Shown in pieces: positions 24,873-53,075 of a stretch of 64,000 nt of DNA. The notes below the pieces were generated by a model. That model was not told where the DNA came from. It searched no databases and saw only the letters and a list, made by a program, of their open reading frames with translations. Numbering within the stretch: the first letter of the stretch is position 1; each line of letters begins with the position of its first letter. Source of the DNA: Guyparkeria hydrothermalis (GTDB lineage Bacteria; Pseudomonadota; Gammaproteobacteria; Halothiobacillales; Halothiobacillaceae); the NCBI RefSeq assembly GCF_023555385.1, contig NZ_JAJSED010000001.1:992001-1056000 (forward strand), written 5' to 3'. Both the position numbers and the translations under genes were made by a program.

Positions 24873-24996
24873 GCCGCTTTGGACGCACCGGGGGCGTTTC
24901 CCCATTGCACAAGGCAGCCCGGCAGAACCGTATAGCTCATCCGACAGCAAACGGCCCTGTCAGGCACACTACAGAAAAAGACACAAGGACTACTTA

Positions 24997-27683: not shown

Positions 27684-27686
27684 CTA

Positions 27687-35042: not shown

Positions 35043-35060
35043 AGAGCTTTCCTTATCAGA

Positions 35061-36905: not shown

Positions 36906-37753
36906 TGCGACTCCCCCCTTTCCTCGGCAAACGTTTCGACCTCCTCGCTCTCAGGCCGGCTCACGGTGAAGCGGATATTGATCCGGCGGAATTGGGCCAA
37001 TTGCTCGTCGGTAAGATCATCTTGATGCGAAATGACATTCAGCGATCCTGGTGGCCGCGAATCGGCATAGCCACTAACAGAAAACAATGGCTTGCCGTCT
37101 GGGTTCCTCAGTTCATCGAGCTGGCTATCGCTGGGCAGAGCGTCCTCCCAGAAACGCCAAAGCGAGATGGCACGGAAGGTCGAGAGGCACCAGTTACCCT
37201 TCCCGGCGCACTGCGCCCCGTCAAACGGGCGGGGGTCTGTGTGCCCTTCGATGAAAACCGTATCCAGATAGCGAAACCGGTCACCGTGGCTTACCACCTC
37301 GTGCAGCACCCGACCGATATCCCGGGCAGTTTCCTGGTATCGAGGAAGAATCTCATCCCGACCGGAGCCGAACCCCAGGAGCTCGTTCGGTATGCTTACG
37401 ACGGACGCGTTCTCGCTGATTCGGACATTAATTCCTCGCTCGGCAAGCTTTTGAACAAGCTCCTCGACGACCGTACGACGCACCTCCTCGGCCTTTCTCA
37501 GCTGAGCGAGAGCCTCCTGGAGTTGTTCCTTGGTGCTCTCGTATCGAGCCTTTGCCTCCGTGAGCTCTTCCCGAGTCTCTTCAACTTCGGTCTGCTTCTT
37601 CTCGAGAACCGCTTGCTCCTCAATCACCTGAAGGATCAAAACTACCGAAGCCAGGATGAAGACAACCAGCAGCCCCGCCATGATGTCCGAGAAACTTACC
37701 CAGTACGGGTTCTCTTCGTCTACGGATTGAAACCTAGGCTTTCGGGAGCGCAT
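36902..37753 (-). CDS. zorB: Zorya protein ZorB (MotB/OmpA-like stator unit)
   Basis: 283 aa. A single N-terminal transmembrane helix follows the motif NPYWVSFSDIMAGLLVVFIL, whose Asp (residue 23) corresponds to the proton-binding Asp of MotB-like stators. A periplasmic coiled coil (about 45-105) and an OmpA/peptidoglycan-binding domain (VFIEGHTDPRPF, SVSGYADSRPPG and INIRFTVSRP) follow. ZorB pairs with ZorA to form a proton-driven membrane motor anchored to peptidoglycan. The start overlaps the zorA stop by one base (TGATG) and the end overlaps zorC by 4 nt. Confidence 0.95.
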   Translation of the reverse strand: MRSRKPRFQSVDEENPYWVSFSDIMAGLLVVFILASVVLILQVIEEQAVLEKKQTEVEETREELTEAKARYESTKEQLQEALAQLRKAEEVRRTVVEELVQKLAERGINVRISENASVVSIPNELLGFGSGRDEILPRYQETARDIGRVLHEVVSHGDRFRYLDTVFIEGHTDPRPFDGAQCAGKGNWCLSTFRAISLWRFWEDALPSDSQLDELRNPDGKPLFSVSGYADSRPPGSLNVISHQDDLTDEQLAQFRRINIRFTVSRPESEEVETFAEERGESQ

Positions 37754-39723
37754 CAGCGAGCCTCCAGCTCATCAAGAATGCCACTCATGGCCTGAACGTT
37801 CTGCAGCATCTTGTCGGCATATTGCTGCGAATGCTTGTTCCATTCCTGCATTCGCTCATCCACCTGCTGATGCACCTCATCACGATATTCGTGCAACCAG
37901 TTCTCGGCCTGCTTCTCGATTGCCTCAACCTGCTGACGGAGAGAGTTCCCCAGCGCCTCAAACTGCTTTTGTACCGACTCGAGGAACTGCTCCTGGTGAT
38001 CGCCGAGCTCACTGAAGCCCGTTTGCGCCAGCTTCGCGGCTTCGTTCATTCGGCTTGTTGTATCAGCGAGGCTTGCCTGAAGCGTCTCTAGATGGGAAAC
38101 CTGCTGTGAAAGCATTTTGGCAACCTCAGAGTTCTGCCCACCGAGTGCCTCGATTCGCTCGAGCGTTCCTCCCATCTGTTCGCCAAGCACCTCGGCGGAT
38201 TGAGTCAGGTTGGTGGCCAATACACCGAGGTGGTTGGCGCTGTTATCCAGGTGACGGCTGCTCGTCGTAACCGCCTCTCCCACAGACTCGAAACGCTCAA
38301 GAAGGCTGCGATGCCTTTCGGCCATTTCACGGCTCTGCTCCTGGGCCTGCACTGTAGCTTTGGATATCTCGGTCAGCAGGGCCCGCTGCTCCTCTGCCAA
38401 TGCATTGATGTGCTCATTGAATCGGGCCCGCTGCGCTTCTTCACGTTGCTCGGTGGCGGCCTGGTGAGCATCCAAGCGATCACCCAGGTTGCTCAATAGC
38501 GATTCCATTCCCTCATTCAGCTTTTGCTGACGTTCCTCAGCGACCGAGGACAATTGTTGGATCTGGTGACTGAACTCGCCTGCTTGCTGGCTCGACAGTT
38601 CTGCTTGTTGGGCCCGCTGTGTCTCCATTGACTCCATGATGGAAGCCACCTGTTCGCTCATGCCTGATACGGCACCATTCACTTGAGCAGCCGCCCGCTC
38701 CATGATTTCCCCTTGTTCACGGCCGGCGCTCGACACGCCACCCATGAATTCTTTTACAAGGGCCTCCATCGCATGCGTCGACTGTTTGCTGGTCGTGTTC
38801 ACCAGCGTTTCGATCGCCGGCCCCATGATGTTGTTTAGGGTGTCGCTCAGGGCATGCTGCATGCTGTCGGTCAGCCCATTGAGCGTCTCCTGCATCCGAT
38901 CACCAATCCGCTCATGAAGCTCTTGGAGAGACTCCTTGCTCTCTCGTGTGTTGTCGGAAATCTGCACGAGTGAGTACTCGGCCGGTAGCCGAGGGTAGAG
39001 AAAATCAATCTGGTACTGGACATCACGGATTTGCGCTAAGGCAAACCTCTCCATCAATTTCTCGATGAAGTTAAAAACAAAACTGAATAACACACCCCAA
39101 ACGGAGGTCATGAAGGCTACGGCAGCCCCAGCTATCAGCGCCGTGATGCCGCCGCGAATCTCGTCGACGTTTTGAAAGTCACCGTTGGCTCCAAGATTTG
39201 CCAAACCAATGGTCAAACCCACAAAAGTACCGAGAACGCCGACCGCGACAAGAAAGCTCGGCATGGCTGCCAACAACCGACTTCCGGTCAGCCCCGGCGC
39301 CAGACTGTTGGCGTTAAAGAAATGCTCTGCATCTAGCGTGTTGAAGACGTGATGGTTGTCAACAGAGCTGACCAGACTCTCATCGAATTCACGCCACAAC
39401 TTCCCAATGTTCAGCACGTCAAGGTCGAGTGCCTTTTTCAAGGTTTCACGACGCGAGGCGGCAAGGGTTTCTTTGCTCTGCCCGGCCAGTAGGCTTTTCA
39501 ATGCATTCAATCGATCCCGAAAATGCTGAATGTGGCGCACGAGGAAGAAAAGCCCCAGCGAGAACATTCCGTACATCACGATCCAGAAAAGAGCGCTCAG
39601 AGCTCCGGCATGTTCCGTCAACGCTACTGTGCTTTGCCCCTCGTCTGAGGTCTGCCCCATGTTGGCTATGGCAGCGAACAAGTCAGCAAAATTCGGTATC
39701 AGGTGTTGCAACAGGTCCAGCAT
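37753..39723 (-). CDS. zorA: Zorya protein ZorA (MotA/TolQ/ExbB-like motor with long tail)
   Basis: 656 aa. Transmembrane segments lie at about 45-62, 145-165 and 180-215, with the MotA/ExbB core LVAVGVLGTFVGLTIGLANL and ITALIAGAAVAFMTSVWGVL. The remaining 400 residues form a long Gln/Glu-rich coiled coil (about 260-650), the cytoplasmic tail characteristic of ZorA. ZorA with ZorB makes the rotary-type stator that senses phage and transmits the signal to ZorC and ZorD. It is the first gene of the minus-strand operon. Confidence 0.95.
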   Translation of the reverse strand: MLDLLQHLIPNFADLFAAIANMGQTSDEGQSTVALTEHAGALSALFWIVMYGMFSLGLFFLVRHIQHFRDRLNALKSLLAGQSKETLAASRRETLKKALDLDVLNIGKLWREFDESLVSSVDNHHVFNTLDAEHFFNANSLAPGLTGSRLLAAMPSFLVAVGVLGTFVGLTIGLANLGANGDFQNVDEIRGGITALIAGAAVAFMTSVWGVLFSFVFNFIEKLMERFALAQIRDVQYQIDFLYPRLPAEYSLVQISDNTRESKESLQELHERIGDRMQETLNGLTDSMQHALSDTLNNIMGPAIETLVNTTSKQSTHAMEALVKEFMGGVSSAGREQGEIMERAAAQVNGAVSGMSEQVASIMESMETQRAQQAELSSQQAGEFSHQIQQLSSVAEERQQKLNEGMESLLSNLGDRLDAHQAATEQREEAQRARFNEHINALAEEQRALLTEISKATVQAQEQSREMAERHRSLLERFESVGEAVTTSSRHLDNSANHLGVLATNLTQSAEVLGEQMGGTLERIEALGGQNSEVAKMLSQQVSHLETLQASLADTTSRMNEAAKLAQTGFSELGDHQEQFLESVQKQFEALGNSLRQQVEAIEKQAENWLHEYRDEVHQQVDERMQEWNKHSQQYADKMLQNVQAMSGILDELEAR

Positions 39724-39786: not shown

Positions 39787-41421
39787 TCACGTCGCTGAGT
39801 TCGCTTCAGACGGCTCGGCAGACTCGGTAACTTCTCGATGCGAAAGCTCGAGTTCCGCCTTCTGAACTAGGTGAGCGGGCAGCTCGTCTTTAACCGAAAC
39901 GCCGAGCTGCTTGAACTCGCTCGCCTGCTTGATGAGGTTGCCGCGGCCATCGAGCAACCGATCCCTCGACTGGCTGTAAGCGTCCTTGGCCTTGTCCAGG
40001 TGCTTGGCGATGTCTTCAAAGCTTTCGAGGAAAAGGCGCAGCTTGTTGTAAACCTTGCCGGCCTTGTCCGCGAGCTCAGCGGTGTGCTTGTTCTGATTTT
40101 CGAATCGCCACAGCTGCCGGACGATGTTCAGGCTGGTCAGCAAGGTGGTCGGGGTCGCGACCAGAACGTTCTTCTCCAGCGCCTTCTGGAAAAGCGTCTC
40201 ATCACCTCGCAGTGCCTCGACGAAAGCCGATTCGATCGGGATGAACATGAAGACCATGTCCGGTGAATTGAACCCGGGCAGGTCCTGGTACTGGCGATCC
40301 GCAAGTTCCTTGATGCGATCGGAGATCGACTGAACGTGCTCTTTAAGCCGAGCGGCGCGAACCCCTTCCTCCTCGGCATTGACGTAGTCCGTGTAGGCAT
40401 TCAGAGAGACTTTGGCATCGATAATGAGATGCCTATTGTCCGGCAGATAGACCACAGCATCGGGGCGTGACCGACCGTTCTCGGTATTCACGCTCACCTC
40501 CCGCTCATAGTCGATGCCCTTTCTCAGCCCCGACCGATCGAGGGCGTTCTCGAGGATTAGCTCACCCCAGTTGCCCTGCTTCTTCTTTTCGCCACGAAGC
40601 GCCGTGGCGAGATTGTGGGCCTCTGCCGTCATTTGCTGATGCATCGTCTGGAGCTGCTTCAGCTCCTGGCGCATTGCAGCCTGCTGCTGCGTTTCGTGAT
40701 GATGCACCTCGTCGACGCGTTTGCGGAAACCGTCTATCTGTTCGCGGAACGGTTTGAGGAGGTCGTTGAGAGATTCCTGGCTCTTGTTGGCAAAGGCCTT
40801 GCCTTTGGCCTCGAGGATCTCGTTTGCCAGGTTCTGAAACTCGGACTTCAGGGCAACCTTGTTCTCCTCCAACTGACGAAGCTGTTCGCGGTAATGCTTG
40901 TCTCGCTCGGCATGGCTAGTCTTTAGCTGGGCCAGCTCTTCGGCGATCTCGTGGCGTGCCTGCTCGATCGTTTCTCTTTTGCGAACCTCGGCAACCAGTT
41001 CTTCTTTGAGCTCCTCAAACCGCTTTTCATCTCGCTGGGCCTGCTCCTTCCCGGCCTGGAGGTTGGACTCGGCCGCGGACAGCGTCCGCTCACGTTCGGA
41101 ACGAACCTCCTGCTCCTTTTCGAGACGCTCGACAAGGGTTCGATTTTCGGCCGTCTGTCTCTCCAATCGCTCACGAGCCGTCGACAGTTGCTCATCCGAA
41201 ACCGCTGCCTTCTTCTCAAGCTCCTGCAGCTGAAGCTGAGCCTCTTTGTACTCAGTCGACCGCGCCTCGAGGTCGGCAGCAAGCTGGGAAACCTCCTGCT
41301 CCTGCCGCTCGATTCGCGCCTCATGCCTAGCCAGCCGGCGACTCACTTGAAGGCGTGCCGCAAGATAGCCAACCGCTAAGGAAAAGACCGAAAAAGCCCC
41401 AATCTGGAACGCGATGTCCAT
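39787..41421 (-). CDS. rmuC: RmuC family DNA recombination protein
   Basis: 544 aa from the ATG at 41421, preceded by AAGGAG. One N-terminal membrane anchor (MDIAFQIGAFSVFSLAVGYLAA), a long coiled coil (about 30-220), then the RmuC nuclease-like core: NWGELILENALDRSGLRKG, RPDAVVYLPDNRHLIIDAKVS (PD-(D/E)xK-like D and DAK) and MVFMFIPIESAFVEAL. RmuC limits recombination at inverted repeats in E. coli. It lies between zorA (63 nt away) and a helicase gene, so here it is probably an accessory island copy with a defence or DNA-processing role. Confidence 0.92.
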   Translation of the reverse strand: MDIAFQIGAFSVFSLAVGYLAARLQVSRRLARHEARIERQEQEVSQLAADLEARSTEYKEAQLQLQELEKKAAVSDEQLSTARERLERQTAENRTLVERLEKEQEVRSERERTLSAAESNLQAGKEQAQRDEKRFEELKEELVAEVRKRETIEQARHEIAEELAQLKTSHAERDKHYREQLRQLEENKVALKSEFQNLANEILEAKGKAFANKSQESLNDLLKPFREQIDGFRKRVDEVHHHETQQQAAMRQELKQLQTMHQQMTAEAHNLATALRGEKKKQGNWGELILENALDRSGLRKGIDYEREVSVNTENGRSRPDAVVYLPDNRHLIIDAKVSLNAYTDYVNAEEEGVRAARLKEHVQSISDRIKELADRQYQDLPGFNSPDMVFMFIPIESAFVEALRGDETLFQKALEKNVLVATPTTLLTSLNIVRQLWRFENQNKHTAELADKAGKVYNKLRLFLESFEDIAKHLDKAKDAYSQSRDRLLDGRGNLIKQASEFKQLGVSVKDELPAHLVQKAELELSHREVTESAEPSEANSAT

Positions 41422-41594
41422 ATCCACTCCTTGTTCGTTATTGGTTCTCGAGTGAGATGCTCGCCACCTATGTCCACAGCACTTTCCGCTTCGACGTGAC
41501 ACTCACTCTCGCCGCGTCCACTCAGCGCTTTAATGGCAAGCGTCGATGGCTGTCGAGAAGCGCGACGAATTATCTACATTTTTGCGAAAACCGG

Positions 41595-44500
41595 TTACCC
41601 ACTTTCGGCGCAACGAGGAGGCAGGAGGCTGATCCGCAGCCGTTGTGAGAGCGAATCGATCTCGTCGTGGGACAACGTTTCCCAAAGGTATTCAACGAGA
41701 TCCTCTTGCCTTGCCTGGCCGAAAACCATCCGGTAAACCGCCAGCGATCGCTTAAGCATCTGAAGGCGCTGATAGTCGCGACTCAGCGGCAGCCGCGGCA
41801 CATGCCGTTCAATATGGGCGCCATCGGCAAGGGGGTAGGTCCAAAAAGGTACCAACCCACGACCACTACCCGCGTCATCCACTTCGGCCGCACGAAACAT
41901 TCTCCACCAGGGATCACCCGCTCCATCGCGCAGCAAATCCCCATATTTAGCCGCGATGTTCTTCCGCACCGCATGATTCTTGTAGCGATGCACCCGCCCC
42001 TCACGCTGCTCCATATCCACCGGGTTGGCCGGCAGGTTCCAGTGCATCACCGCATGGCAATACGGATGGAAATCGAGGCCCTCCTGCCCCACGGACGTGG
42101 TGACCAACAGGAAAGGCCAGAACGGTGAGTTGAAGGCATCCCTGACGTGCTGTTCTCGCAGATCCCGGCCATCCTCACGCTTCTCGTTGCCAAACCGAAG
42201 TGCAAAGTGGGTTCGCAGCGACCGGCTGTCTCCATCGATCGTGATATCGGACCCCGTCTGCTCAACCGCCTTCCAGCGGGAACCACTAGTGATCAACTCG
42301 AGACCGCTGCGCGCCACATCAGCGACTTCGTCGCCGGCCGTTTCCGTGCTGGCATCACGCAGGCCACGAGATTCCACCAGTAGGTGCAGAAACTCGTCGA
42401 GAACGGCCTGAAGTCCGCCATCGAATGAGTACCGCAACACCTGCCGCCAGTAAGGTTGCTGACCACCGAACATGCGAATCAGCGCCATGGCTTCAGGTTG
42501 GTTGAGCAGCTTGCGAAAGCCCCAGGAAAGCTTCGCAGCCGCATCTCGCGTCTCGGTAGAGGCGAGCCCGTCACCATTGCCGACGACTCTGGATAGGGAT
42601 CTCAGGCAGGTAACCCCCGGCGCGGCGAGTGCCATATCCGTGATCACATCGATCAAATCGGCTGGAGGACGACCCAACAGCTCTCGCTCTCCATCGTTAT
42701 CCAGGAGATTTTTGAGTTGCTCAGCATGGTCCGGGAATGATGAAGGCAACGATTCGACATCGTCGTCGCCACCCACCCAGACCTGAGCCAGGGCCTTGCC
42801 ATCCTCTGAGCCACCTCGACTCAGCCAGGCCGTCGCCGCCTCACCATTATCCTCCTGATCAAGCAGCACAGGTGTGGCCCAGTACCATCGCTTGTCCTCT
42901 TGGCCGGATTCCCCACTCGTTTCCTCGAGGATCGGCTCCAAGGCCTGCTCGACCCGCCCACGGACCAGCGCGCGAAACTCCTCTTTGGGCATGCGGTATC
43001 CGGCTTTCTCGTGCGGAACATCGAGTGGATCACCAAGACGGGCGAGAGAGAACGACGGGTAGAGAAGCGCCAGCGCCGGCATGCCGGTCAGGCGCCCGTC
43101 GCGGCGCTCAAAATCAAAAAGGCGTCCGTACCGCTTCCTGGCTTCGGACGTGTTGCTCGGCCGATCCTTGAACTCCTGGAAGATCAATCGCTCGACCTCG
43201 TAACTCACCAGCGCAGAGATCACCCGTGGAACAACCGTCCAGCTCGAGAAAATCAGCCGCTTGGTCGGACTGTGATCGGCCGCCTGTGCAAACACGCCAC
43301 CGAGCTCGTAATACGGTGCCGAGGGTGGCATCCACAGCAGGCGCCAGACTCCCGATTCCCTGACATCCTCGAGAAGGCTCTCGATCCGGGCATTGACGGG
43401 TTCGAGGCGCCGATAGGCCTCGATATCGCTTGGAGACAGAAGGAGGTTGCGACTCGCCTTCAACGTGGCAACGACCGATGGCTTTCGACTGTCCTCTAGG
43501 GACCGCTCGAATTCTTCCTTGAACTTGTACGCTTCCATGAAGTTCAGGAGATAGGCACCCGACTTCCAATACTCGGTAACATCGCCACCGCCGAGAATCC
43601 TGGAAAGCTTTTGCAGGGAGACGTAGCGCTGGACATCGGGTGTCGACAGACGGAGCTGTCGCCCCTCGACGTCCTTGAGCATGTCGTCCGCCCCTTCGCC
43701 GATTGCGAGGCGCTCGGTACGGACCATGTAGCGACGCAAGGCCGCCTCCAAGGCCTCCTTGGCTGCGAAAAGTGCCTGATCATCCCCATCGGCGAGCCGA
43801 TACATGGCATCGCGGTAGTTCTCGATCAGCCGCGAAAACGACTCACCCTTGCCCTCTCCGTTCTCGAGAAATTCGAGCGTGGCGAGAAAGTCCTGATAGT
43901 GATCCTCCTCGCCCCGCTCGTCGTGCAAGGTGTACATCTTGTATGGCGTGGCCGACAGCAGGAGCGTTCTTACCCGGTTATCGCCATTGGCATAGTCGAA
44001 GAGTTTGCCCGCCAGGCTCGAGGAGTCGGTGGCGTCGCCCAGGAGATCCTTGAACCGCTGAAACTCGTCCAGAATGATCAGGTCCGGTTCAAGGGCACTC
44101 ACACACGCCCTGGCAAGCTGCTCCCGCAGTTCCCCGATGACCACCTCGCGCTCTTTCCGGACGCTACCTGGCAGATCTCCATGCGGAGTCGTATTGCCCT
44201 CGTCGTCGTGGAAAGCCGGGTCCATGCAAAGCGCGAGCAACCTGCTGCGCAAATGCACGACGTCTTCGTAAGCCGTAAGGGTTCCGAGGAAACGGTCCCG
44301 GATCGCGGGATCGATACCGGCAGCACGTTCCTGCCAGCCGAGCCCGGTCACGCCCTCGCGCCATTGGTCCCAGTCGTTCACAGTGCCCTGCAGTACTCGA
44401 AGTAATGAGATCTTCGGTAGGCTCCAGTCATCCTTGAGCAGCCAGAAAAGCAGCTCCCGCTCCTGGCGAATGCCCATAGCGGAACGCAGATTCAGCGAAG

Positions 44501-44888
44501 TACTGGGCGTGAACGAGATGAAGTTGATCTTCTGCGCGGGATCCTGACGGGTGATGGGCAACAAGGTGATCCGCGAGGCGTGCTCGAAATCCCGTTGTTT
44601 CGTGATGTTGAGCCGGTTGAGGTTCTGCCGTGCGATGTCGGCATTGGAGCAGATGTACACGACGTCAATGCGGCCGACCTCATCCCAGAGGTGCTCCACG
44701 GCCTTGGCGACAACACCACGCGCCACCATGGTCTTGCCCAGCCCGACCTCGTCGGCGACAAGAAACCGATGGACGTGGTCAGGATCCGTATAGAGCCGAC
44801 GAAAGACGTACTCGACCGTGTCTCGCTGAAACGGCTTTAGTCGGTTCAGGACCGCCCGAACTTCTGAGGTTTCAAACTGGCTATCCAT
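41595..44888 (-). CDS. SNF2/DEAD-type helicase of a three-gene candidate defence module
   Basis: 1097 aa from the ATG at 44888 (MDSQFETSEVRAVLNRLKPFQ), overlapping the upstream stop by 8 nt. The motor is complete: Walker A FLVADEVGLGKTMVARG (about 43-59), a DEAH-like box DLIILDEFQRFKD (about 266-278), motif III LLLSATPYKMY and a C-terminal lobe with SVGQEGLDFHPYCHAVMHWN and EQREGRVHRYKNHA (about 930-970). A large insertion of over 400 residues sits between the lobes. No nuclease motif is evident; the partner PLD protein could supply that activity. Confidence 0.88.
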   Translation of the reverse strand: MDSQFETSEVRAVLNRLKPFQRDTVEYVFRRLYTDPDHVHRFLVADEVGLGKTMVARGVVAKAVEHLWDEVGRIDVVYICSNADIARQNLNRLNITKQRDFEHASRITLLPITRQDPAQKINFISFTPSTSLNLRSAMGIRQERELLFWLLKDDWSLPKISLLRVLQGTVNDWDQWREGVTGLGWQERAAGIDPAIRDRFLGTLTAYEDVVHLRSRLLALCMDPAFHDDEGNTTPHGDLPGSVRKEREVVIGELREQLARACVSALEPDLIILDEFQRFKDLLGDATDSSSLAGKLFDYANGDNRVRTLLLSATPYKMYTLHDERGEEDHYQDFLATLEFLENGEGKGESFSRLIENYRDAMYRLADGDDQALFAAKEALEAALRRYMVRTERLAIGEGADDMLKDVEGRQLRLSTPDVQRYVSLQKLSRILGGGDVTEYWKSGAYLLNFMEAYKFKEEFERSLEDSRKPSVVATLKASRNLLLSPSDIEAYRRLEPVNARIESLLEDVRESGVWRLLWMPPSAPYYELGGVFAQAADHSPTKRLIFSSWTVVPRVISALVSYEVERLIFQEFKDRPSNTSEARKRYGRLFDFERRDGRLTGMPALALLYPSFSLARLGDPLDVPHEKAGYRMPKEEFRALVRGRVEQALEPILEETSGESGQEDKRWYWATPVLLDQEDNGEAATAWLSRGGSEDGKALAQVWVGGDDDVESLPSSFPDHAEQLKNLLDNDGERELLGRPPADLIDVITDMALAAPGVTCLRSLSRVVGNGDGLASTETRDAAAKLSWGFRKLLNQPEAMALIRMFGGQQPYWRQVLRYSFDGGLQAVLDEFLHLLVESRGLRDASTETAGDEVADVARSGLELITSGSRWKAVEQTGSDITIDGDSRSLRTHFALRFGNEKREDGRDLREQHVRDAFNSPFWPFLLVTTSVGQEGLDFHPYCHAVMHWNLPANPVDMEQREGRVHRYKNHAVRKNIAAKYGDLLRDGAGDPWWRMFRAAEVDDAGSGRGLVPFWTYPLADGAHIERHVPRLPLSRDYQRLQMLKRSLAVYRMVFGQARQEDLVEYLWETLSHDEIDSLSQRLRISLLPPRCAESG

Positions 44889-46725
44889 GCCGCCTAAGCG
44901 TCTCCCTCGTTTGCCAGATGGGCTCCCACACCTCCTGGAACGCCGTTGGAATGAGGTCTGCCCCCTTGTCGGTACGACGCAACTCCTCAACCACCTTTGC
45001 TACCTGATCCAGCCGCTCCGGGTCACGGTCCAGCGCTTTGAGGAGCGTTTCCAGCATAGGAATTTGTCCGCCTCCACTGCCGCGCCCCTGGGCACTAGAA
45101 CTGAGCATGCCGTGCATCTCGTGAAGATCTCGAGATGCTTCCGGGATATCGGCAAGCATCATCAAGAGCAGCCGAAAGAAAGCCGCCCTATTCTCGACGA
45201 TCGAGCTCAGCAACTCCTCGAAACGGTGGTCAGGTTCCCCCTCGATAGGCAGGCGGAGAACGAACTGCGACCGGGCGCTTAGACCGCTTTCTTCCGCGGT
45301 GATATCTACGACGAGAAATGCCGAAATCGCCTCGATCGAGATCTCGCCAAAATCGGCGACAGGGTCACCCCCCGGATCAACCTGCTGGAGCGACTGCTGA
45401 GAGAGCGTCACCGGTCGAACCTTGATGTGCCACCCGACGTCCGCCTCGGGGAGAGCCCCCTCAAGCCGAAACTGGTAGCGACCTTCCTGCCGCCCCGGGG
45501 TAACACTCAGGCAAAGCTCGGTCCCGGCTAGCTCTCTGCGGTAATTCCCCACGCGCTCTTCAAGTTTTTGTTGATCGCTTTGGTCCGCCTTCTCGGTTGT
45601 CGATGGAACATACTTGCGAAAGAGGTCACGGAAGCCGTTGGATCCGGCTTCCTGACTCAGGAAAACGGGAATGCCCATCCGCTTGCGATCACCAACGAGC
45701 TCCACCAGGAACTCGACATTGTTGCAGAACGCCGCCGTGGTGGCATTGGCGGACCCGGTCCATAGCCTTGCCTTCGCACCCTCGTCAACGAGGTAGAACT
45801 TGGCATGAAGCCCCGACAACATATCGGCCCCATCCGCCTCGGCCTTCTCGACCTCCACCTGTTCGGGGTTCGCCTCCTCGGCCAGAATCAAGGTGTCGTT
45901 AAACGTTTCGAGGAGGTCCTGCTCCACCGCTTCCGCCGAATCGAGACGGGTCGCCAAGGTGATCTGCCGTTCTTCCGGCCGGAGCCGCGCAAGGAACTCT
46001 TCCGCGAGAAACGGAGATGTCACGAGCAACGGAGACCTCGAATCCACAAAATCGGGGATGGGCGCAGAGCGTGTGCCGATGGGCCAGAACCGCATGCGCT
46101 CGACGCCGGGAGGCGGATCGAAGACGATCTCTCGGAGATCGTCCTGCATCGTCTGAACCTCTCTGATCCACTCAGGCGATACCGTCGCGGTAGTCATTGC
46201 GGGAAGCGCTCCGAGGAAATCAATCAACGGCTGATTGATCGAGGGGTCACGTTCGGAATCTCCAACTCGGCCATCCAGAACGAGTGCCGTATCCCAAGAA
46301 CGATCGAAGGTCAGGTTGCGACTCAGGCACAGGAAGCGGTAGAGGACTTCGTCACCCTCCCCTTTGTAGCGAAGCAACCAGATTTTCGGGTGAAAGACGC
46401 CTCCCTGAGGCGAGTGGACGGGGAACACCGATCCTTCCAGGTAAGCGAACATTGACTCGCTCCTGGGCGGCACATGGATTTCCCCTGCCTGACAGAAGAT
46501 CGCCATCCGATTGGCATATTCACGCACCGATCTGAGGAGGGCGAGCGGGTCTGGCCGGCGTGTTTCTTCGTCTTCCTGCCAATCAAAAAACGTGAATGCC
46601 AGCGGCGCCGTGAGTAGCGCATGCAGATCCAGTGAATAGGTCGTACCGATCGCGCGATCCAGTTGATGGCCGACCGGTGGCTTGAGACTCTCGAGCAGAA
46701 GCTGCCTATCCTGCGGCTCGAGCAT
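44881..46725 (-). CDS. Phospholipase D-like (HKD) protein of the candidate module
   Basis: 614 aa from the ATG at 46725, with GGAG 7 nt upstream (a TTG 18 nt earlier is weaker). Two HxK half-motifs are visible: GGVFHPKIWLLRYKG (about 109) and GLHAKFYLVDEGAKARLWTG (about 300). The second continues into SANATTAAF, the normal PLD context. Such proteins are often DNA nucleases in defence systems. The gene overlaps the DUF6361 stop by 20 nt and the helicase start by 8 nt, so the three products are surely co-translated. Confidence 0.88.
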   Translation of the reverse strand: MLEPQDRQLLLESLKPPVGHQLDRAIGTTYSLDLHALLTAPLAFTFFDWQEDEETRRPDPLALLRSVREYANRMAIFCQAGEIHVPPRSESMFAYLEGSVFPVHSPQGGVFHPKIWLLRYKGEGDEVLYRFLCLSRNLTFDRSWDTALVLDGRVGDSERDPSINQPLIDFLGALPAMTTATVSPEWIREVQTMQDDLREIVFDPPPGVERMRFWPIGTRSAPIPDFVDSRSPLLVTSPFLAEEFLARLRPEERQITLATRLDSAEAVEQDLLETFNDTLILAEEANPEQVEVEKAEADGADMLSGLHAKFYLVDEGAKARLWTGSANATTAAFCNNVEFLVELVGDRKRMGIPVFLSQEAGSNGFRDLFRKYVPSTTEKADQSDQQKLEERVGNYRRELAGTELCLSVTPGRQEGRYQFRLEGALPEADVGWHIKVRPVTLSQQSLQQVDPGGDPVADFGEISIEAISAFLVVDITAEESGLSARSQFVLRLPIEGEPDHRFEELLSSIVENRAAFFRLLLMMLADIPEASRDLHEMHGMLSSSAQGRGSGGGQIPMLETLLKALDRDPERLDQVAKVVEELRRTDKGADLIPTAFQEVWEPIWQTRETLRRHG

Positions 46726-47983
46726 GTCCTTGCTCCTCTGCAATTCCCTCGTGAATGTCTCGCAGCAGGGTTTTCACGGTCTCCCAGCGGAAGGTGAGCT
46801 GGTCTGCCCCGAGGTTTCCCGACCACAATTCGAGCGCTCGGCGATTCACCAACCGAGCGAGATTCTTCTTCAAGGCTTCTTCGCGCTTTCGAATCAAGTC
46901 TTGAGCGACAGCGTTTAAGAGCAGATCGCGTGGCTGCGTTGACTGAAGAACCAGGTCAAACCATTGATCAATGAACTGTCTGGTTCGATTCGTCTCCGCA
47001 AGCCGTGGATTGTCCTTGGCCACGTAATCCCAAAATTCATCCCGCCTGCGATCCCACTCAGCCAAGCTGTCGCGACGCTCGATGACCACCCCTGCCCAAT
47101 CGTGGAAGTGTTTTTCTGACTGCTCGATCTGTTCATGCCAGCCCCCAGGCAATTCCGACGCGGCTCGCTTAGCCAACATGCAGTCATAGAGAAGCCGCGC
47201 ACCGTGGGTCAGGAGGGAAAAGTTGCTGGCATGCATGAGCTCGTCTTTGAGCCGACCGGGGGACACGTGGTCATCGGAGAGCAAGTCCCACGGGAACGCC
47301 ATATCTCCAAAGGGAACGTCTGGCCTGTCGATGAGATATGCCAATAAAGTACCCGGCACCGTCTCACGAACGCGGTCTTTCAGGTATCTCGCCTCGGTTT
47401 GGGTGAGAGCCATAGAAAGGTTTTTTGGATAGTCCTTAGGGAGATCTGGTAGACCTCCATGCCAGTTCGCCATAGCAGCCGAACACGCCTCTTCATCTTG
47501 AGAATGAGCGGAAATCGGCGGACCGTTCTCGGCCAGATGCCGCGCATATGCATCCTGGGAGCCCTCGAAGAGACGAATCCCCCATCGCTTGAGCCCCTGC
47601 CAATAGACACTTCCTGGGAGACGCTGAACGCTTTTGCCGGAACTCGCACCGATCACACCGTCAGTGTCGGAAGAGTGACTCAAGGGGTGAATAAGGCTGA
47701 CTTCCTCGGACCGAATCCAATCCCGAATCGTGGCTGGATCCCTCGTCCGCTTCTGGCGCAATTTTGCTTCGACACGTAGATGGCACCACGGCACCAGAAG
47801 GAAGTACCGCGCTCGCGTCTGGATGGTCGAGGTGCCCGGGAACAGCAGATTGGATATGGCATCCCGAACCGTGCCGATACCCAGCTCGTCTCGGGTACCG
47901 GGCTCGTTCAACGCCTGCACGGCATTCAACATCTGCCGCCGCTCGGTTTCGGAATAATCCAGCCAGGAAAACGAAGAGGCCAC
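46706..47983 (-). CDS. DUF6361 family protein of the candidate module
   Basis: 425 aa from a GTG at 47983 (MASSFSWLDYSETERRQML), chosen because a GGGGG box sits 8 nt upstream and this is the usual DUF6361 start; a GTG 9 nt earlier is possible. The protein is helical and soluble: TIQTRARYFLLVPWCHLRVEAK, then a PGSVYWQGLKRWGIRLFEG segment, then C-terminal basic helices. DUF6361 has no known activity. It heads the operon with the PLD-like protein and the helicase. Confidence 0.85.
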   Translation of the reverse strand: MASSFSWLDYSETERRQMLNAVQALNEPGTRDELGIGTVRDAISNLLFPGTSTIQTRARYFLLVPWCHLRVEAKLRQKRTRDPATIRDWIRSEEVSLIHPLSHSSDTDGVIGASSGKSVQRLPGSVYWQGLKRWGIRLFEGSQDAYARHLAENGPPISAHSQDEEACSAAMANWHGGLPDLPKDYPKNLSMALTQTEARYLKDRVRETVPGTLLAYLIDRPDVPFGDMAFPWDLLSDDHVSPGRLKDELMHASNFSLLTHGARLLYDCMLAKRAASELPGGWHEQIEQSEKHFHDWAGVVIERRDSLAEWDRRRDEFWDYVAKDNPRLAETNRTRQFIDQWFDLVLQSTQPRDLLLNAVAQDLIRKREEALKKNLARLVNRRALELWSGNLGADQLTFRWETVKTLLRDIHEGIAEEQGHARAAG

Positions 47984-48299
47984 TGTCAGCACCCCCCTGA
48001 ACCTGACAAAAAATCAGACGTCCCTTGGGAACCAGCACGAGCGTGGGATTGCTCCCTTTCAAAGACAGCGGCTTGCAGTGTCCTTGGGCGGCACCGACGT
48101 GATAGGGGTATTCGCCCGCATACTTCCATTGGTGGCACTAACCAGTTCACTTCTACCCATCCCTCCTTGGCGGACCGTCTTTCGATCGACGTCAAATCAT
48201 CGGCAGGCTAACAAAATTCGAGAGCCCGCATATGTTCGCTTGTCTCGACTATCCATAAGTCACCAAGCGTGACTGTCCACAGAACCGTATGGGCATCAT

Positions 48300-48316
48300 G
48301 CGACAGTTAACGTCGC
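48300..48316. promoter_or_regulatory. Operator-like palindrome, copy A
   Basis: GCGACAGTTAACGTCGC, the least perfect of four related sites (one arm base differs), centred on GTTAA. It lies about 160 nt upstream of the AAA+ start and about 315 nt upstream of the divergent DUF6361 start. On the minus strand a TACGGT hexamer follows after 10 nt, as at the other sites, so it might serve the minus-strand operon. Confidence 0.55.
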
Positions 48317-48412
48317 AGGGAACACAGCACCGCCTTCCGGCACCCAGCCGTGGCGGCGCAATAAACTCAGGCAAAAATTTCCACCCTCTCTTCTCACACA
48401 GGCCCACCTGAT

Positions 48413-48429
48413 GCGACAAAACCTGTCGC
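48413..48429 (+). promoter_or_regulatory. Operator-like palindrome, copy B
   Basis: GCGACAAAACCTGTCGC, a perfect 6-bp inverted repeat with 5-nt spacer, 48 nt before the AAA+ start codon. It differs from copy D at a single base. CATAGT follows 10 nt downstream. Confidence 0.7.
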
Positions 48430-48477
48430 GGCTATCCGGCATAGTGCTTTCCCAACCGACGAACGGAGAAAGCGAAC

Positions 48478-50634
48478 ATGCCTTTTAAGCTCAGTCGTCA
48501 CCGAATCCCCAACTTTCGCAACTCGGCAAGTGAAGCACTCACCCCCTTGGAGCTATCCGATCCCGAGCTTCACTGGTGCCTAGACCTTCTCGTCGCACAC
48601 GGTGATCTGAAGGGCTTCGTCGAGGAGTTCGGCGGTTGGTCAGACGCCTCCGTGGCTTCGGCCCTGGGCTTACCCCCTGCCGAAGAGTTTGAAATGGATC
48701 CCGACCAGATGCGTCGCAGCGTAAGCGCCCGCTATCGCGAAGTGCGCGCGCATCGGAACAACCTCGAGCTGCCGGACGAGCTTGCCATCAACCTTGCCAA
48801 ACTGGCCGAGTTGATCGGTCTCGACGAGACCGAACAGCTCATCCTTGCCTTCACGGTCATTCTGCACGGCGGCTCAACACTCACCGCTCTGGCATCCCAA
48901 GGCCGGGATCACTCGAGCGCGAGTCTTTACACCACGCTGAGCGGCTTGCTCCAGATGCCGATTAACGAGGTCCGTCGAGCCTTGTCCCCCGCCGGCCTGC
49001 TTCACACGACGGGCCTCATCGAGGTGGACCGCGATGGCCAGTACAACCTGATCGGCAAGCTCGAGCTGGGCATTCGAAGCTTCAGCGAAAAGATGTTCGA
49101 ACAGAACATCGAACCCGTGGACCTGTTTCGGGGCAAACTCACCACCGCCCCTTCAGGCCGCCTTGCCTCAGACGATTTTTCTCACATCGACGAGGTGCAC
49201 ACGCTGGTCAAGGCAGTGGTCGCTGATGCCAAGCGCCGACAACGCCAAGGCGTCAATGTGCTGCTCTACGGTGCTCCCGGCACCGGAAAGACCGAACTGA
49301 GTCGGCTCGTTGCCTCCGAAGTCGGGCTTGAAGCCTTCGAGGTGGCGATCGAATCGAAGGATGGCGACCCCGAGGACGGGCGCCACCGGCTCCGGGCATG
49401 GCGCGCCGGGCAAGCGGTGCTAGGCAGCCGCCCTGCCCTTCTCATCTTCGATGAAGCCGAGGACATCTTCGCTTCGCATCAGCTGTTCAGCAGCTCACTT
49501 GCGCAGCGCATGAAAGGCTGGGTCAACCGGGCGCTCGAGACGAACCCCGTCCCCACGCTGTGGCTTTCGAACTCCATCAGCAGCCTGGATCCGGCCTTCG
49601 TCCGACGATTCGACCTGTTGCTCGAGGTACGCCAGCCCACCCACGACCAACGACGACGGATGGCTCAACAAATGCTCGGGGACCGAGTCGACGACGCACT
49701 CCTCGATCGGGTAGCGGCCACGGACAGCCTGAGCCCGGCAGTCCTGCAGCGGGCCGCCTCTGTCGCCCACCGCATCTCCATGCCTGCCTCACACAGCCCC
49801 GAGATGCAGCCCGCAGGCACCACGACCGACACACTGCTCGGCGACGAAAACCGGCTGATCCAGATCATGCTGGACAACACGCTCAAGGCACAGGGTGCCA
49901 AAGGGCTGAATATGGAGCCCGCGCTCGGCCTGGCTGGCCGTTACCGGCCCGAACTCGTGAACACGACCAGCGACCTTTCCCAAGTAGCCAACGGCATCGC
50001 CACGACGAATGATGCACGCCTGTGCCTCTACGGCCCGCCGGGCACCGGCAAAAGTGCATTCGGCCACTGGCTGGCCGAGAAGCTTGACCGGCGGCTAATC
50101 CTGAAGCGGGCATCTGACCTACTCGGTCCCTACGTGGGGATGACCGAACAGAACATGGCAGAAGCGTTCCGGGAAGCCGAGGAAGCGGGAGCCATCCTCC
50201 TTATCGACGAGATCGACAGCTTCCTCGCTGACCGGGCCGGCGCCACACAGCAATGGCAGGCAACGATGGTCAACGAGATGCTCACCCAGATGGAGCGTTT
50301 TCAAGGCGTGTTCATTGCCACGACCAACCGCATGAATGGCCTGGACCCTGCCACGATGCGTCGCTTCGACCTGAAGCTCGAGTTCGACTATCTCGATCAC
50401 GCCCAGCGCGAGAGGCTGCTCCGCGAGACGGCTCGAAATCTCGGTGCGACCCGCGGCATCCAGAAGGCACGCGGGGAGCTTCACGACTTGCACAATCTCA
50501 CGCCGGGCGATTTCGCTGCGGTTTCGCGGCGCCATCGATTCGAGCCCTTCGCCACGGCCGAGGAGCTCGTATCAGCGCTACGAGACGAGTCGCGGCACAA
50601 ACCGGATGGAAGGGAGCGGCGGATCGGTTTCTGA
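48478..50634 (+). CDS. Tandem AAA+ ATPase
   Basis: 718 aa. A helical N-terminal region (1-225) is followed by two AAA+ modules. Module 1: Walker A LLYGAPGTGKTELSRLVA (about 261-278), Walker B ALLIFDEAEDIFASH (about 320), sensor WLSNSISSLDPAFVRRFDLL. Module 2: Walker A CLYGPPGTGKSAFGHWLA (about 515-532), Walker B AILLIDEIDSFLADR (about 570), sensor IATTNRMNGLDPATMRRFDL. Both arginine-finger regions are present. It is probably a protein- or DNA-remodelling ATPase. The gene opens a plus-strand run with a WYL regulator and carries two operator-like palindromes upstream. Confidence 0.88.
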   Translation: MPFKLSRHRIPNFRNSASEALTPLELSDPELHWCLDLLVAHGDLKGFVEEFGGWSDASVASALGLPPAEEFEMDPDQMRRSVSARYREVRAHRNNLELPDELAINLAKLAELIGLDETEQLILAFTVILHGGSTLTALASQGRDHSSASLYTTLSGLLQMPINEVRRALSPAGLLHTTGLIEVDRDGQYNLIGKLELGIRSFSEKMFEQNIEPVDLFRGKLTTAPSGRLASDDFSHIDEVHTLVKAVVADAKRRQRQGVNVLLYGAPGTGKTELSRLVASEVGLEAFEVAIESKDGDPEDGRHRLRAWRAGQAVLGSRPALLIFDEAEDIFASHQLFSSSLAQRMKGWVNRALETNPVPTLWLSNSISSLDPAFVRRFDLLLEVRQPTHDQRRRMAQQMLGDRVDDALLDRVAATDSLSPAVLQRAASVAHRISMPASHSPEMQPAGTTTDTLLGDENRLIQIMLDNTLKAQGAKGLNMEPALGLAGRYRPELVNTTSDLSQVANGIATTNDARLCLYGPPGTGKSAFGHWLAEKLDRRLILKRASDLLGPYVGMTEQNMAEAFREAEEAGAILLIDEIDSFLADRAGATQQWQATMVNEMLTQMERFQGVFIATTNRMNGLDPATMRRFDLKLEFDYLDHAQRERLLRETARNLGATRGIQKARGELHDLHNLTPGDFAAVSRRHRFEPFATAEELVSALRDESRHKPDGRERRIGF

Positions 50635-50726
50635 CTCGCAGAGGCCCTGAAGAACGTGCATTCGCTCCACCACATCTAAGCCCGGAAAAGGTAAGGTCAC
50701 CCAGTCATCTCACTATTGGACTAGCC

Positions 50727-51719
50727 ATGGTAGACACCGCCATTCGAAAGATTGAGATGCTCCGCCATATCCCGCGAGAGCCCAGGAAGATCTCCACCTC
50801 GGAACTACGCGCGCGGCTCGCCGCCGCGGGATTCGAGGTAACGCAACGCACCATCCAGCGCAATCTCCAGGACCTTTCCGCACACTTTCCGTTGGTAAGC
50901 GACGAGCGCAACACCCCCTACGGATGGTCCTGGTCAAAAGATTCCGCCGCAGAACCACTGCAAAGCATGGATGCCGCGACGGCCCTGACGTTCACGATGG
51001 CCGAGGAATATCTCAAGGAAATGCTTCCTATTGGCGTACTGAGCCTGATGGATCCACATTTCCGCCATGCGCACCACGTGCTCGAGTCCAATGGCAACGG
51101 ATTATTCGCCTGGCGCGACAAGATTCGCCTTCTCCCACGCTCCCAGCCCCTTCAACCGCCGGAGATCGATCCGGATATTGCGAGGGTCGTGTATGACTCT
51201 CTACTGCACGACCGCCGCTTTGCGGCCACCTACAAGCCTAGAGACAGCGAGCCTCGGCAGTACATCCTGAGTCCACAGGGCCTCGCGTTTCGTGACGCCG
51301 TCACCTATCTCGTTGCCAACCACCGCGACTATGACGATGTGGTCATGTTTGCCCTCCATCGGTTTCTCGAGGCCGAAGAGACCGATCAGCCAAAGCGTGA
51401 ACTTGCGGACTTCAACATCGACGACTGGGTTGGACGCGGCGGGTTTGACGCCGGTCAGCATGAGAAAACAATCCGGCTCGTTGCTCGCTTTTCTTCGGGA
51501 GCGGGTAAGCACCTATTCGAAACCCCAGTCGAGGGACAGCGCTCGCTGACGGTCTGCGATGACGCCCGGCTCGAGCTGACAGCCGACGTCCGAGATACTC
51601 ACCAGCTCCGCTGGTGGCTACGAGGATTCGGCCCCGACGTGGAAATCAAATCACCGAAGCCGTTGCGTGACTGGGCGATAGAAGGCATCCAGCGGCAACT
51701 GGCGACCTATGAGACCTAG
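50727..51719 (+). CDS. WYL-domain helix-turn-helix transcriptional regulator
   Basis: 330 aa from the ATG at 50727; the frame is open far upstream but that part overlaps the AAA+ gene. The N-terminal winged helix is MLRHIPREPRKISTSELRARL with TQRTIQRNLQDLSAHFPL. The WYL ligand-binding domain is around YKPRDSEPRQYILSPQGLAF (about 170-190), followed by the WCX-like C-terminus. WYL regulators of defence islands (BrxR, CapW) bind inverted repeats and respond to nucleic-acid-type signals. It sits 92 nt after the AAA+ gene and is the best candidate to read the GCGACA-N5-TGTCGC sites. Confidence 0.9.
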   Translation: MVDTAIRKIEMLRHIPREPRKISTSELRARLAAAGFEVTQRTIQRNLQDLSAHFPLVSDERNTPYGWSWSKDSAAEPLQSMDAATALTFTMAEEYLKEMLPIGVLSLMDPHFRHAHHVLESNGNGLFAWRDKIRLLPRSQPLQPPEIDPDIARVVYDSLLHDRRFAATYKPRDSEPRQYILSPQGLAFRDAVTYLVANHRDYDDVVMFALHRFLEAEETDQPKRELADFNIDDWVGRGGFDAGQHEKTIRLVARFSSGAGKHLFETPVEGQRSLTVCDDARLELTADVRDTHQLRWWLRGFGPDVEIKSPKPLRDWAIEGIQRQLATYET

Positions 51720-51767
51720 CTAGCCCCGTAAAACCAACAAACCAGCGACAGCATCCAGGAGCCCCCC

Positions 51768-53075
51768 ATGGAAGAGGACAAGACGCAACAGAAACAAGCG
51801 GACACTCAGACCCTCGAAAAGGAACAGACGTCCGATGGTGCCAATCAGTTGTCTGTCCGGTCCTACCGGAAGGTGAGCATCTATGTGGCGGTCGTTCTTT
51901 TGATCTTGGTCTCGTGGGTCGAAGTCTTCGATCGGAAGACGGAAAGTTACATCGATCAAACACTCGTCACGGCAGTGACCAGCTTTGCATCCGCCCGAGC
52001 GATCAACGCGACGGTCTCCGTCATCAAATCGGCAGAAGTGAGTGTGCCCTTCGTTAGCGCCGACATCGGAGCCGCGCTGGATCCTATCGATGACATGGTC
52101 GAAGACTTCTCGACCGTCATGAAATTCGCCACAGCCTCGCTGGTCCTGCAAAAGATCATTATCGAGATTGTCTCTTCAACGGGCTTCAAGATCCTTCTCA
52201 CGATCGGCGGTCTTTTATTTATCGCCATCCTTCGATATGGCCCATCGGGCATCACAAATACCGCTTTCAAGGTCTTCCTGACCGTTGGCCTTGTTCGATT
52301 CCTCTTGATCCTTGTGCTGGCCGCGAGCGCGATGGCAGACAACGCCTTCCTTGAAGAACAGACCGAGGCAGAAGCGCAGAAGCTGGCCCAGCAATCCAAC
52401 CAGTTCCAGGCGGCCGAGTCCGAAATCGACCTATCTGCCGAAGAGAAAGCAACGCTCGAGGCAAGGCTGACCGAGGCCGAGTCCGCAAAACAGCAGGCAA
52501 TGACAGCCAGCCAGGAACTGGCCACCAAACTCGAAAAGGCGCGTGATGAACTGACAGCGGCTCAGGAGAGAGTCGAGAGGCTTGACGAGGGCCGGTCGAC
52601 CATGGACGCGATCAATTTCATGAAAGACACCCCGGAGTACGACAAAGCCGAGGGGGCCCGTGATCAAGCGGCAGACAAGGTCGAGCAACTGTCCAGCCGA
52701 ATGGACGCTCTTAATGACCAAATCGAGGAATATGCCGAGGAAGCACAAGACATCCGGGCCATCCTCGCGGGCAAGGATGGATCGTTCATGAGTTCGGTGT
52801 CCCGAAAGATGTCAGCCATCAAAGATTCACTGAGCCTCGATAACATCGGTCAACTGGCTGACGATTTCATCGACTCCTCGATTCGGCTCATCAGCCTGTT
52901 CGTGCTCAAGACGATCGCCCTGCCGCTGCTGTTCCTCTACCTCGGCATCAAGGCCTTCCAGGCGATTTGGCGCGTTGATCTCGCCAACTTCGCCCAGGAG
53001 AAATACCAGGAAGGGCGGCAAAAGCTCAAGGACCACCGTCGGCCCAAAGCCGACGCTGTGACAAGCTCCGAGTGA
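51768..53075 (+). CDS. Membrane protein with central coiled coil
   Basis: 435 aa. Membrane segments lie at about 36-52, 140-158 and 165-185, and a C-terminal one at about 372-395 (ISLFVLKTIALPLLFLYLGI). Between them a long charged coiled coil runs from about 195 to 325 (EEKATLEARLTEAESAKQQA and ARDELTAAQERVERLDEG). I do not recognise the family. It follows the WYL gene by 48 nt on the same strand, and a strong terminator ends the transcript, so AAA+, WYL and this protein probably form one unit. Confidence 0.7.
   Translation: MEEDKTQQKQADTQTLEKEQTSDGANQLSVRSYRKVSIYVAVVLLILVSWVEVFDRKTESYIDQTLVTAVTSFASARAINATVSVIKSAEVSVPFVSADIGAALDPIDDMVEDFSTVMKFATASLVLQKIIIEIVSSTGFKILLTIGGLLFIAILRYGPSGITNTAFKVFLTVGLVRFLLILVLAASAMADNAFLEEQTEAEAQKLAQQSNQFQAAESEIDLSAEEKATLEARLTEAESAKQQAMTASQELATKLEKARDELTAAQERVERLDEGRSTMDAINFMKDTPEYDKAEGARDQAADKVEQLSSRMDALNDQIEEYAEEAQDIRAILAGKDGSFMSSVSRKMSAIKDSLSLDNIGQLADDFIDSSIRLISLFVLKTIALPLLFLYLGIKAFQAIWRVDLANFAQEKYQEGRQKLKDHRRPKADAVTSSE

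What the first reader, a model, noticed from the sequence alone, without database searches (positions are those of the whole stretch)
41595..47983. Three-gene candidate defence module: DUF6361 protein, PLD-like nuclease, SNF2-type helicase
The genes overlap by 20 nt and 8 nt on the minus strand, so they are made together. The PLD protein has both HxK motifs and the helicase has an intact motor with a very large inter-lobe insertion. They lie within a defence island between Zorya/rmuC and the AAA+ operon. A helicase plus a nuclease plus a protein of unknown function is the build of many anti-phage systems. I cannot assign it to a named system.
Basis: partly seen in the sequence, partly recalled or inferred. 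Interest (0 to 1): 0.7.

Follow-up and report, generated by a model that had tools for sequence, protein, structure and literature searches.

The report
Azaca phage-defence operon (zacA-zacB-zacC)
The three overlapping genes are an intact copy of Azaca, an already named bacterial anti-phage system made of a helical protein of unknown role, a nuclease-like protein and a DNA-motor protein, so the locus is ordinary although how the system works is still unknown.

Summary
In detail: three minus-strand genes, overlapping by 20 and 8 nt, encode a DUF6361 protein, a PLD-like protein with two HxK motifs and an intact Swi2/Snf2-type motor. The statement "cannot assign to a named system" does not hold. 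PADLOC profiles name them ZacA (405 bits), ZacB (578) and ZacC (1113), each over nearly the full profile: the Azaca system. In 398 genomes of the phylum the three families score highly in the same 5 genomes. Of the 80 best of 555 ZacA loci, 60 hold enough downstream DNA; 59 of 60 have a zacC match, and 52 of 60 have both partners near full length. The large helicase insertion is a family trait between motifs IV and V, inside lobe 2. The window's RmuC and Zorya were not found at 85 other Azaca loci. Most likely mechanism (inferred): ZacC surveys DNA as a dsDNA translocase, ZacB cuts it, and all-helical ZacA (model pLDDT 90) bridges or restrains ZacB. In passing: a two-gene, ZacC-free sibling pair (ZacA-like plus long PLD protein) in 5 of 398 genomes.

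The parts
46706..47983 (-). zacA (DUF6361 protein; 425 aa from GTG 47983; the ORF runs to 47992)
   Evidence: PADLOC ZacA 405.2 bits over profile 2-394 of 396; Pfam DUF6361 195.6 bits; AlphaFold2 model almost all helical, mean pLDDT 89.9
44881..46725 (-). zacB (PLD-like phosphodiesterase/nuclease, 614 aa from ATG 46725)
   Evidence: PADLOC ZacB 578.5 bits over 1-583 of 586; PLDc_2 23.3 bits, below its cut-off of 27; translation
46384..46392 (-). ZacB first HxK motif (HPK)
   Evidence: H and K in 74 of 74 aligned ZacB
45799..45807 (-). ZacB second HxK motif (HAK)
   Evidence: H and K in 74 of 74 aligned ZacB
41595..44888 (-). zacC (SF2, Swi2/Snf2-type DNA motor, 1097 aa from ATG 44888)
   Evidence: PADLOC ZacC 1112.6 bits over 5-1016 of 1019; Helicase_C 30.9 bits; model aligns to Swi2/Snf2 motors; translation
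44730..44753 (-). ZacC motif I / Walker A (DEVGLGKT)
   Evidence: K in 63 of 63 aligned ZacC
44058..44069 (-). ZacC motif II (DEFQ box)
   Evidence: D, E, F and Q in 63 of 63 aligned ZacC

Best explanation
This is a complete, apparently intact Azaca anti-phage operon, zacA-zacB-zacC (the confidence given is for this identity). Shown: profile membership, gene order, close co-occurrence, intact catalytic motifs, and motor and helical folds in predicted models. Inferred mechanism, about 0.5 likely in this form: ZacC is a Swi2/Snf2-like ATP-driven dsDNA translocase that scans DNA and recognises incoming or replicating phage DNA. ZacB, a two-HxK PLD enzyme (one-chain active site as in metal-independent PLD nucleases, recalled), is the effector that cuts that DNA. 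ZacA, an almost all-helical protein, bridges or restrains ZacB until ZacC is engaged. No methylase belongs to the trio, so self/non-self discrimination is presumably by DNA state (ends, forks, damage, modification) and not by a methyl mark of its own.
For: Near full-length matches of all three proteins to ZacA/ZacB/ZacC. The three families score highly in the same 5 of 398 genomes. Among the 80 best of 555 ZacA loci: a ZacB match in 73 of 74 with at least 1.9 kb downstream and a ZacC match in 59 of 60 with at least 5.3 kb, fragments included; near full length in one frame, ZacB in 68 of 74, and ZacB and ZacC together in 52 of 60. Of 70 loci with all three, 65 are in order, same strand and contiguous. 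Catalytic residues invariant. ZacC model: VIA Z 13.6-15.9 over 392-460 residues with Swi2/Snf2 motors such as ALC1, SRCAP, INO80, ISW1; Foldseek RapA, Rad54, SRCAP at E below 0.001; sequence profile matches RapA at E 1e-5. ZacB profile matches a solved chain called putative helicase (7clg, E 9.7e-7). Papers name Azaca as a defence system with a PLD-like domain (PMC10952713, passage) and with ZacC as an SF1/SF2 helicase (PMC12278908, passage).
Against: No activity data for this locus. The original description (Millman et al. 2022) is not held and was not read. The roles given to ZacA and ZacB are inference; PLD enzymes can act on other substrates (recalled). ZacB's PLDc_2 score is below Pfam's cut-off; single-sequence searches of PDB chains with ZacB and ZacC found nothing. 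NucT and the restriction endonuclease chain 2c1l are not significant (E 0.1 and 0.18), and two designed coiled coils score better. Foldseek TM-scores of ZacC over the whole model are low (about 0.2). No ZacB structure and no complex was predicted. L048 and L067 lack a partner despite room; G187 has a separate 243-aa frame with a ZacC C-terminal match.
Confidence: 0.95

Rival explanations
1. Same Azaca operon (odds given that identity), but ZacB acts as an abortive effector (on host DNA, RNA or lipids) once ZacC senses infection, so that protection comes from cell death or arrest and not from cutting phage DNA.
For: PLD-fold enzymes have several substrates (recalled). In Hachiman a helicase senses DNA damage and liberates a nuclease (PMC12278908, start of abstract in the listing). 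Nothing in the sequences separates the two targets.
Against: The one significant ZacB match of known structure is a putative helicase chain (7clg), which points to nucleic acid. Host versus phage target is not tested.
Confidence: 0.35
2. The trio is a DISARM-like derivative (PLD DrmC plus SNF2-like DrmD) with a new third subunit.
For: ZacC matches DrmD (46.3 bits PADLOC, 54.2 NCBIfam) and ZacB weakly matches DrmC (16.4 bits NCBIfam).
Against: Scores far below the curated cut-offs of 610 and 133, against 1112.6 and 578.5 bits for ZacC and ZacB; DpdE scores as high as DrmD (62.5 bits). No methylase among the three genes.
Confidence: 0.02
3. The trio is one part of a larger defence unit with rmuC and Zorya on the same strand.
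For: rmuC and zorABC follow on the same strand, with about 170 nt between zacC and the likely rmuC start (my choice of start). RmuC domains occur in other systems (PMC10952713, table passage).
Against: No relative of this RmuC or of the window's Zorya proteins at E 1e-6 among frames of the 85 other Azaca loci, in the DNA held.
Confidence: 0.04

Closest known systems
Azaca (ZacA, ZacB, ZacC; Millman et al. 2022, recalled; named in PMC10952713 and PMC12278908, passages)
   Same: All three proteins over nearly full profile length, gene order, strand, overlaps, catalytic motifs
   Different: Ordinary sequence divergence only; of the columns conserved at 95% or more one in ZacC differs (A for P)
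PDC-M27 (PADLOC candidate system)
   Same: Its M27C profile is the best match of the motor after ZacC (72.5 bits, over C-lobe motifs)
   Different: Score fifteen times lower than ZacC; no M27B match of the window's PLD protein at E 0.01
Dpd system helicase DpdE
   Same: Best NCBIfam match of the motor (62.5 bits)
   Different: Far below its cut-off of 500; no other Dpd protein among the matches of the trio at E 0.01
DISARM (DrmC PLD, DrmD SNF2-like)
   Same: Distant kinship of motor and PLD domains
   Different: Scores far under cut-offs; different gene set
Mokosh
   Same: Listed with Azaca among systems with a PLD-like domain (PMC10952713) and among those with an SF1/SF2 helicase (PMC12278908)
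   Different: No profile that I can recognise as Mokosh among the matches of the three proteins (PADLOC's names for it were not checked)
Hachiman (HamA nuclease, HamB helicase)
   Same: Works-like model: a helicase surveys DNA and controls a nuclease (PMC12278908, start of abstract)
   Different: Two genes; other protein families (recalled)

Membership tests
Azaca | ZacA (DUF6361) over full length | tested here: met
   405.2 bits, profile 2-394 of 396; PF19888 195.6 bits
Azaca | ZacB with two HxK PLD motifs | tested here: met
   578.5 bits, 1-583 of 586; motifs; H and K in 74 of 74
Azaca | ZacC helicase over full length with motifs I-VI | tested here: met
   1112.6 bits, 5-1016 of 1019; motifs
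Azaca | Three adjacent genes in order A-B-C on one strand | tested here: met
   the same in 65 of 70 other loci with all three
Azaca | Protects against phage | not testable with these tools
   needs a plaque assay
DISARM | DrmC and DrmD above curated cut-offs | tested here: not met
   DrmD 54.2 against 610, DrmC 16.4 against 133
PDC-M27 | M27B and M27C as best matches | tested here: not met
   M27C 72.5 bits against ZacC 1112.6; M27B not among ZacB's matches at E 0.01
Swi2/Snf2-type SF2 motor (ZacC) | Motor fold of the class | tested here: met
   pLDDT 86.8 model; Z 13.6-15.9, 392-460 residues, rmsd mostly 4.3-5.9 A but 9-17 A in four rows; profile match to RapA E 1e-5

The most novel reading that the evidence does not exclude
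ZacA founds a superfamily of helical partners of two-HxK PLD nucleases with a shared N-terminal PGxS/TxxTxRxRY-type motif. It occurs both with the ZacC motor (Azaca) and in a two-gene, ZacC-free pair (ZacA-like plus long PLD protein) to which I could give no system name. That would make ZacA-ZacB the conserved sensor/effector core and the helicase an optional targeting part.
Probability: 0.3. Interest if true: 0.5.

Novelty: already known. Interest (0 to 1): 0.15.

Why it matters
The locus adds one more, apparently intact, Azaca copy in a dense defence island (type I RM with GmrSD genes, Zorya, Azaca). Two papers seen in passages list Azaca's mechanism as unknown. The conserved residues and the confident ZacA and ZacC models give concrete mutants to test. 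The finding itself is not new.

Tried and rejected
The genome-contig scan with ZacA alone found no relative; the scan with a six-sequence alignment found 555, of which the best 80 were kept. All counts on these loci are therefore on the best 80, and many contigs end early.

Fold search with the ZacA model: no Foldseek hit at E 0.001; best VIA row Z 4.5, rmsd 5.5, 120 residues, a helical-bundle chimera. I take this as no informative match, not as proof of a new fold; its domains were not folded apart. Sequence searches of PDB chains with ZacA profiles gave only E 0.18 or worse.

Apparent oddities L082 (2578-aa ZacC frame) and L040 (991-aa ZacB frame) are runs of masked N. L025, L039, L063, L076 and L085 have split frames, L033 a short ZacC, L060 a short ZacB, and L048 and L067 look degraded. 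In one search the L048 fragment counted as ZacB and the 61-column L067 fragment as ZacC; one search recounts with near full length only. For alignments I kept rows above a profile-coverage limit: of 86 sources, 83 for ZacA, 74 for ZacB, 63 for ZacC. From the tool alignments I left out 4 of 63 ZacC rows (A3) and 5 of 74 ZacB rows (A4) that I judged to be close copies of others by their coordinates; identity was not computed.

Conserved fourth gene: looked for among 2087 flanking frames. The largest group (12 loci; three members scanned are UvrD/PD-DEXK helicase-nucleases) is in a minority, so it is not part of the definition. Promoter scans of 47900-48600 and 41300-41800: no promoter-like site, one terminator-like site each against 0.7 and 0.4 expected.

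Genome searches score only the best two or three first-look candidates per genome, so absences there are not absolute.

Papers: passages only of PMC10952713, PMC12278908, PMC12926258, PMC10482375, PMC12629846, PMC10121019. Others were seen as listings only; (DUF6361) listed none. Millman et al. 2022 is not held and is cited from recall. No mechanistic paper on Azaca was among the rows listed; two searches listed 20 of 91 and 10 of 569.

Full report
Observation. Three minus-strand genes lie at 41595-47983. The frames are open. PF19888 (DUF6361) hits the first protein at 195.6 bits. The second has HPK and HAK motifs. The third has DEVGLGKT and DEFQ plus the later helicase motifs.

Identity. A PADLOC scan names all three: ZacC 1112.6 bits, ZacB 578.5 and ZacA 405.2, each over nearly the whole profile. 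These are the subunits of Azaca. Passages of papers list Azaca among defence systems, with a PLD-like domain (PMC10952713) and with ZacC as an SF1/SF2 helicase (PMC12278908), and count its mechanism as unknown (PMC10482375; PMC12926258). The original report (Millman et al. 2022) is not held and is recalled. The finding's own refutation clause, an exact match to a named system, is met.

Co-occurrence. In 398 genomes of the phylum, ZacA matches at E 0.001 in 7: 5 over the full profile, 2 weak and partial. ZacB matches in 59, but only 5 at 390 bits or more; the other rows are partial, at 55 bits or less, and such partial matches also ring in 5 of 14 control genomes. ZacC matches at E 1e-20 in 5, and in 0 of 14 controls. 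The high-scoring five are the same for all three (G000, G154, G187, G223, G313). Against strict linkage, G187 also has a separate 243-aa frame with a ZacC C-terminal match (292 bits). Among 40 closer relatives, 2 have ZacA: the window's own genome and one of its genus; the latter has ZacB and ZacC beside it.

A collection scan gave 555 relatives of ZacA; the best 80 were kept, from many bacterial groups and some archaea. Of these 80, 74 hold at least 1.9 kb past zacA: 73 have a ZacB match, 68 near full length in one frame. 60 hold at least 5.3 kb: 59 have a ZacC match, and 52 have both ZacB and ZacC near full length. Of the other 8, two are explained by masked N (L040, L082) and the rest are split, short or degraded. 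Of 70 with all three, 65 are contiguous, same strand and in order. ZacA relatives lie on 45 of 72,556 plasmid records and 1 of 50,697 phage records, there over 62% of the query.

Boundaries. At E 1e-6 no frame of the 85 other loci matches the window's RmuC or Zorya proteins; the AAA+ and WYL proteins have one distant match each, HsdM six, HsdS two, HsdR three. The conserved unit is the trio.

Integrity. The window's proteins carry all columns conserved at 95% or more in ZacA (83 sequences) and ZacB (74), and all but one in ZacC (63; A for P).

Structure. ZacA: AlphaFold2 with 83 sequences, mean pLDDT 89.9, pTM 0.87, almost all helical, ends of low confidence. ZacC: mean pLDDT 86.8, pTM 0.90. 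Foldseek hits at E below 0.001 are RapA, Rad54 and SRCAP, with Zorya ZorD at 4.8e-3; whole-model TM-scores are about 0.2. VIA gives Z 13.6-15.9 in the 50 rows shown, Swi2/Snf2-class motors throughout. So ZacC is a dsDNA-translocase-type motor. The ZacB profile has one significant PDB match, 7clg (putative helicase, E 9.7e-7); next come two designed coiled coils (E 0.04, 0.08), NucT (0.1) and the restriction endonuclease 2c1l (0.18).

Mechanism (inferred). ZacC surveys DNA by ATP-driven translocation, ZacB cuts, ZacA bridges or restrains; about 0.5 likely in this form. No methylase is part of the trio, so the self/non-self signal is likely a DNA state. Whether the cut DNA is the phage's or the host's is open.

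In passing. Two weak ZacA hits led to a separate two-gene family. In five of 398 genomes (G075, G252, G321, G322, G378; G321 gave the query) a ZacA-like protein of 520-615 aa overlaps a PLD protein of 786-871 aa. None of the five is among the genomes with ZacC at E 1e-20. It is not free of every helicase: L016 has a UvrD-type helicase gene about 200 nt downstream on the same strand, L112 one on the other strand. Profile comparison links the pair to ZacA over 81 N-terminal columns only (probability 93) and to ZacB over 108 columns around the second HxK (probability 97). PADLOC gives weak matches only.

AddA-like UvrD/PD-DEXK genes lie in 11 of 85 Azaca loci and AddB-like ones in 10, both in 8, some at several kb or on the other strand. 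A DruE-like helicase matches in 4 of 85 and abuts zacA in 3. The profiles for these counts were seeded from the same loci.

Verdict. An ordinary Azaca operon; already known, low interest in itself.

Noticed in passing
L015:4291-8210, L016:11110-15052, L112:5902-10084, L113:5725-10117, L114:7692-11857: Two-gene, ZacC-free sibling pair: ZacA-like protein (520-615 aa) overlapping a long two-HxK PLD protein (786-871 aa); all 5 ZacA-like hits in 398 genomes have it. Weak PADLOC hits only. L016 has a UvrD-type helicase gene downstream. Relatives of the ZacA-like protein on 15 of 72,556 plasmid records.
   Followed up: partly
L012, L019, L024, L030, L043, L052, L062, L084 (flanks of the Azaca operon): AddA- and AddB-like UvrD and PD-(D/E)XK helicase-nuclease genes near Azaca, both in 8 of 85 loci, with frames overlapping the operon in four (L012, L019, L024, L062; Pfam on four members).
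   Followed up: partly
L018:49-4737, L023:2438-7867, L024:3032-8365: Large DruE-like helicase frame directly upstream of and overlapping the zacA frame in 3 of 85 loci; the L018 copy has an MrfA Zn-binding domain.
   Followed up: partly
window 21349-31085 (+): Type I restriction-modification operon (HsdM, HsdS, HsdR) preceded by two GmrSD-domain proteins.
   Followed up: no
window 32007-39723 (-), rmuC 39787-41502 (-): Zorya: ZorA, ZorB and ZorC match PADLOC type I profiles but score below NCBIfam's type I equivalog cut-offs; an SNF2 protein at 32007-35042 is in the ZorD place. An rmuC gene lies between Zorya and Azaca.
   Followed up: no
window 48478-53075 (+): Divergent genes: double-AAA+ ATPase with IetA-like matches, WYL/WCX protein, coiled-coil protein; not assigned to a named system here.
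   Followed up: no
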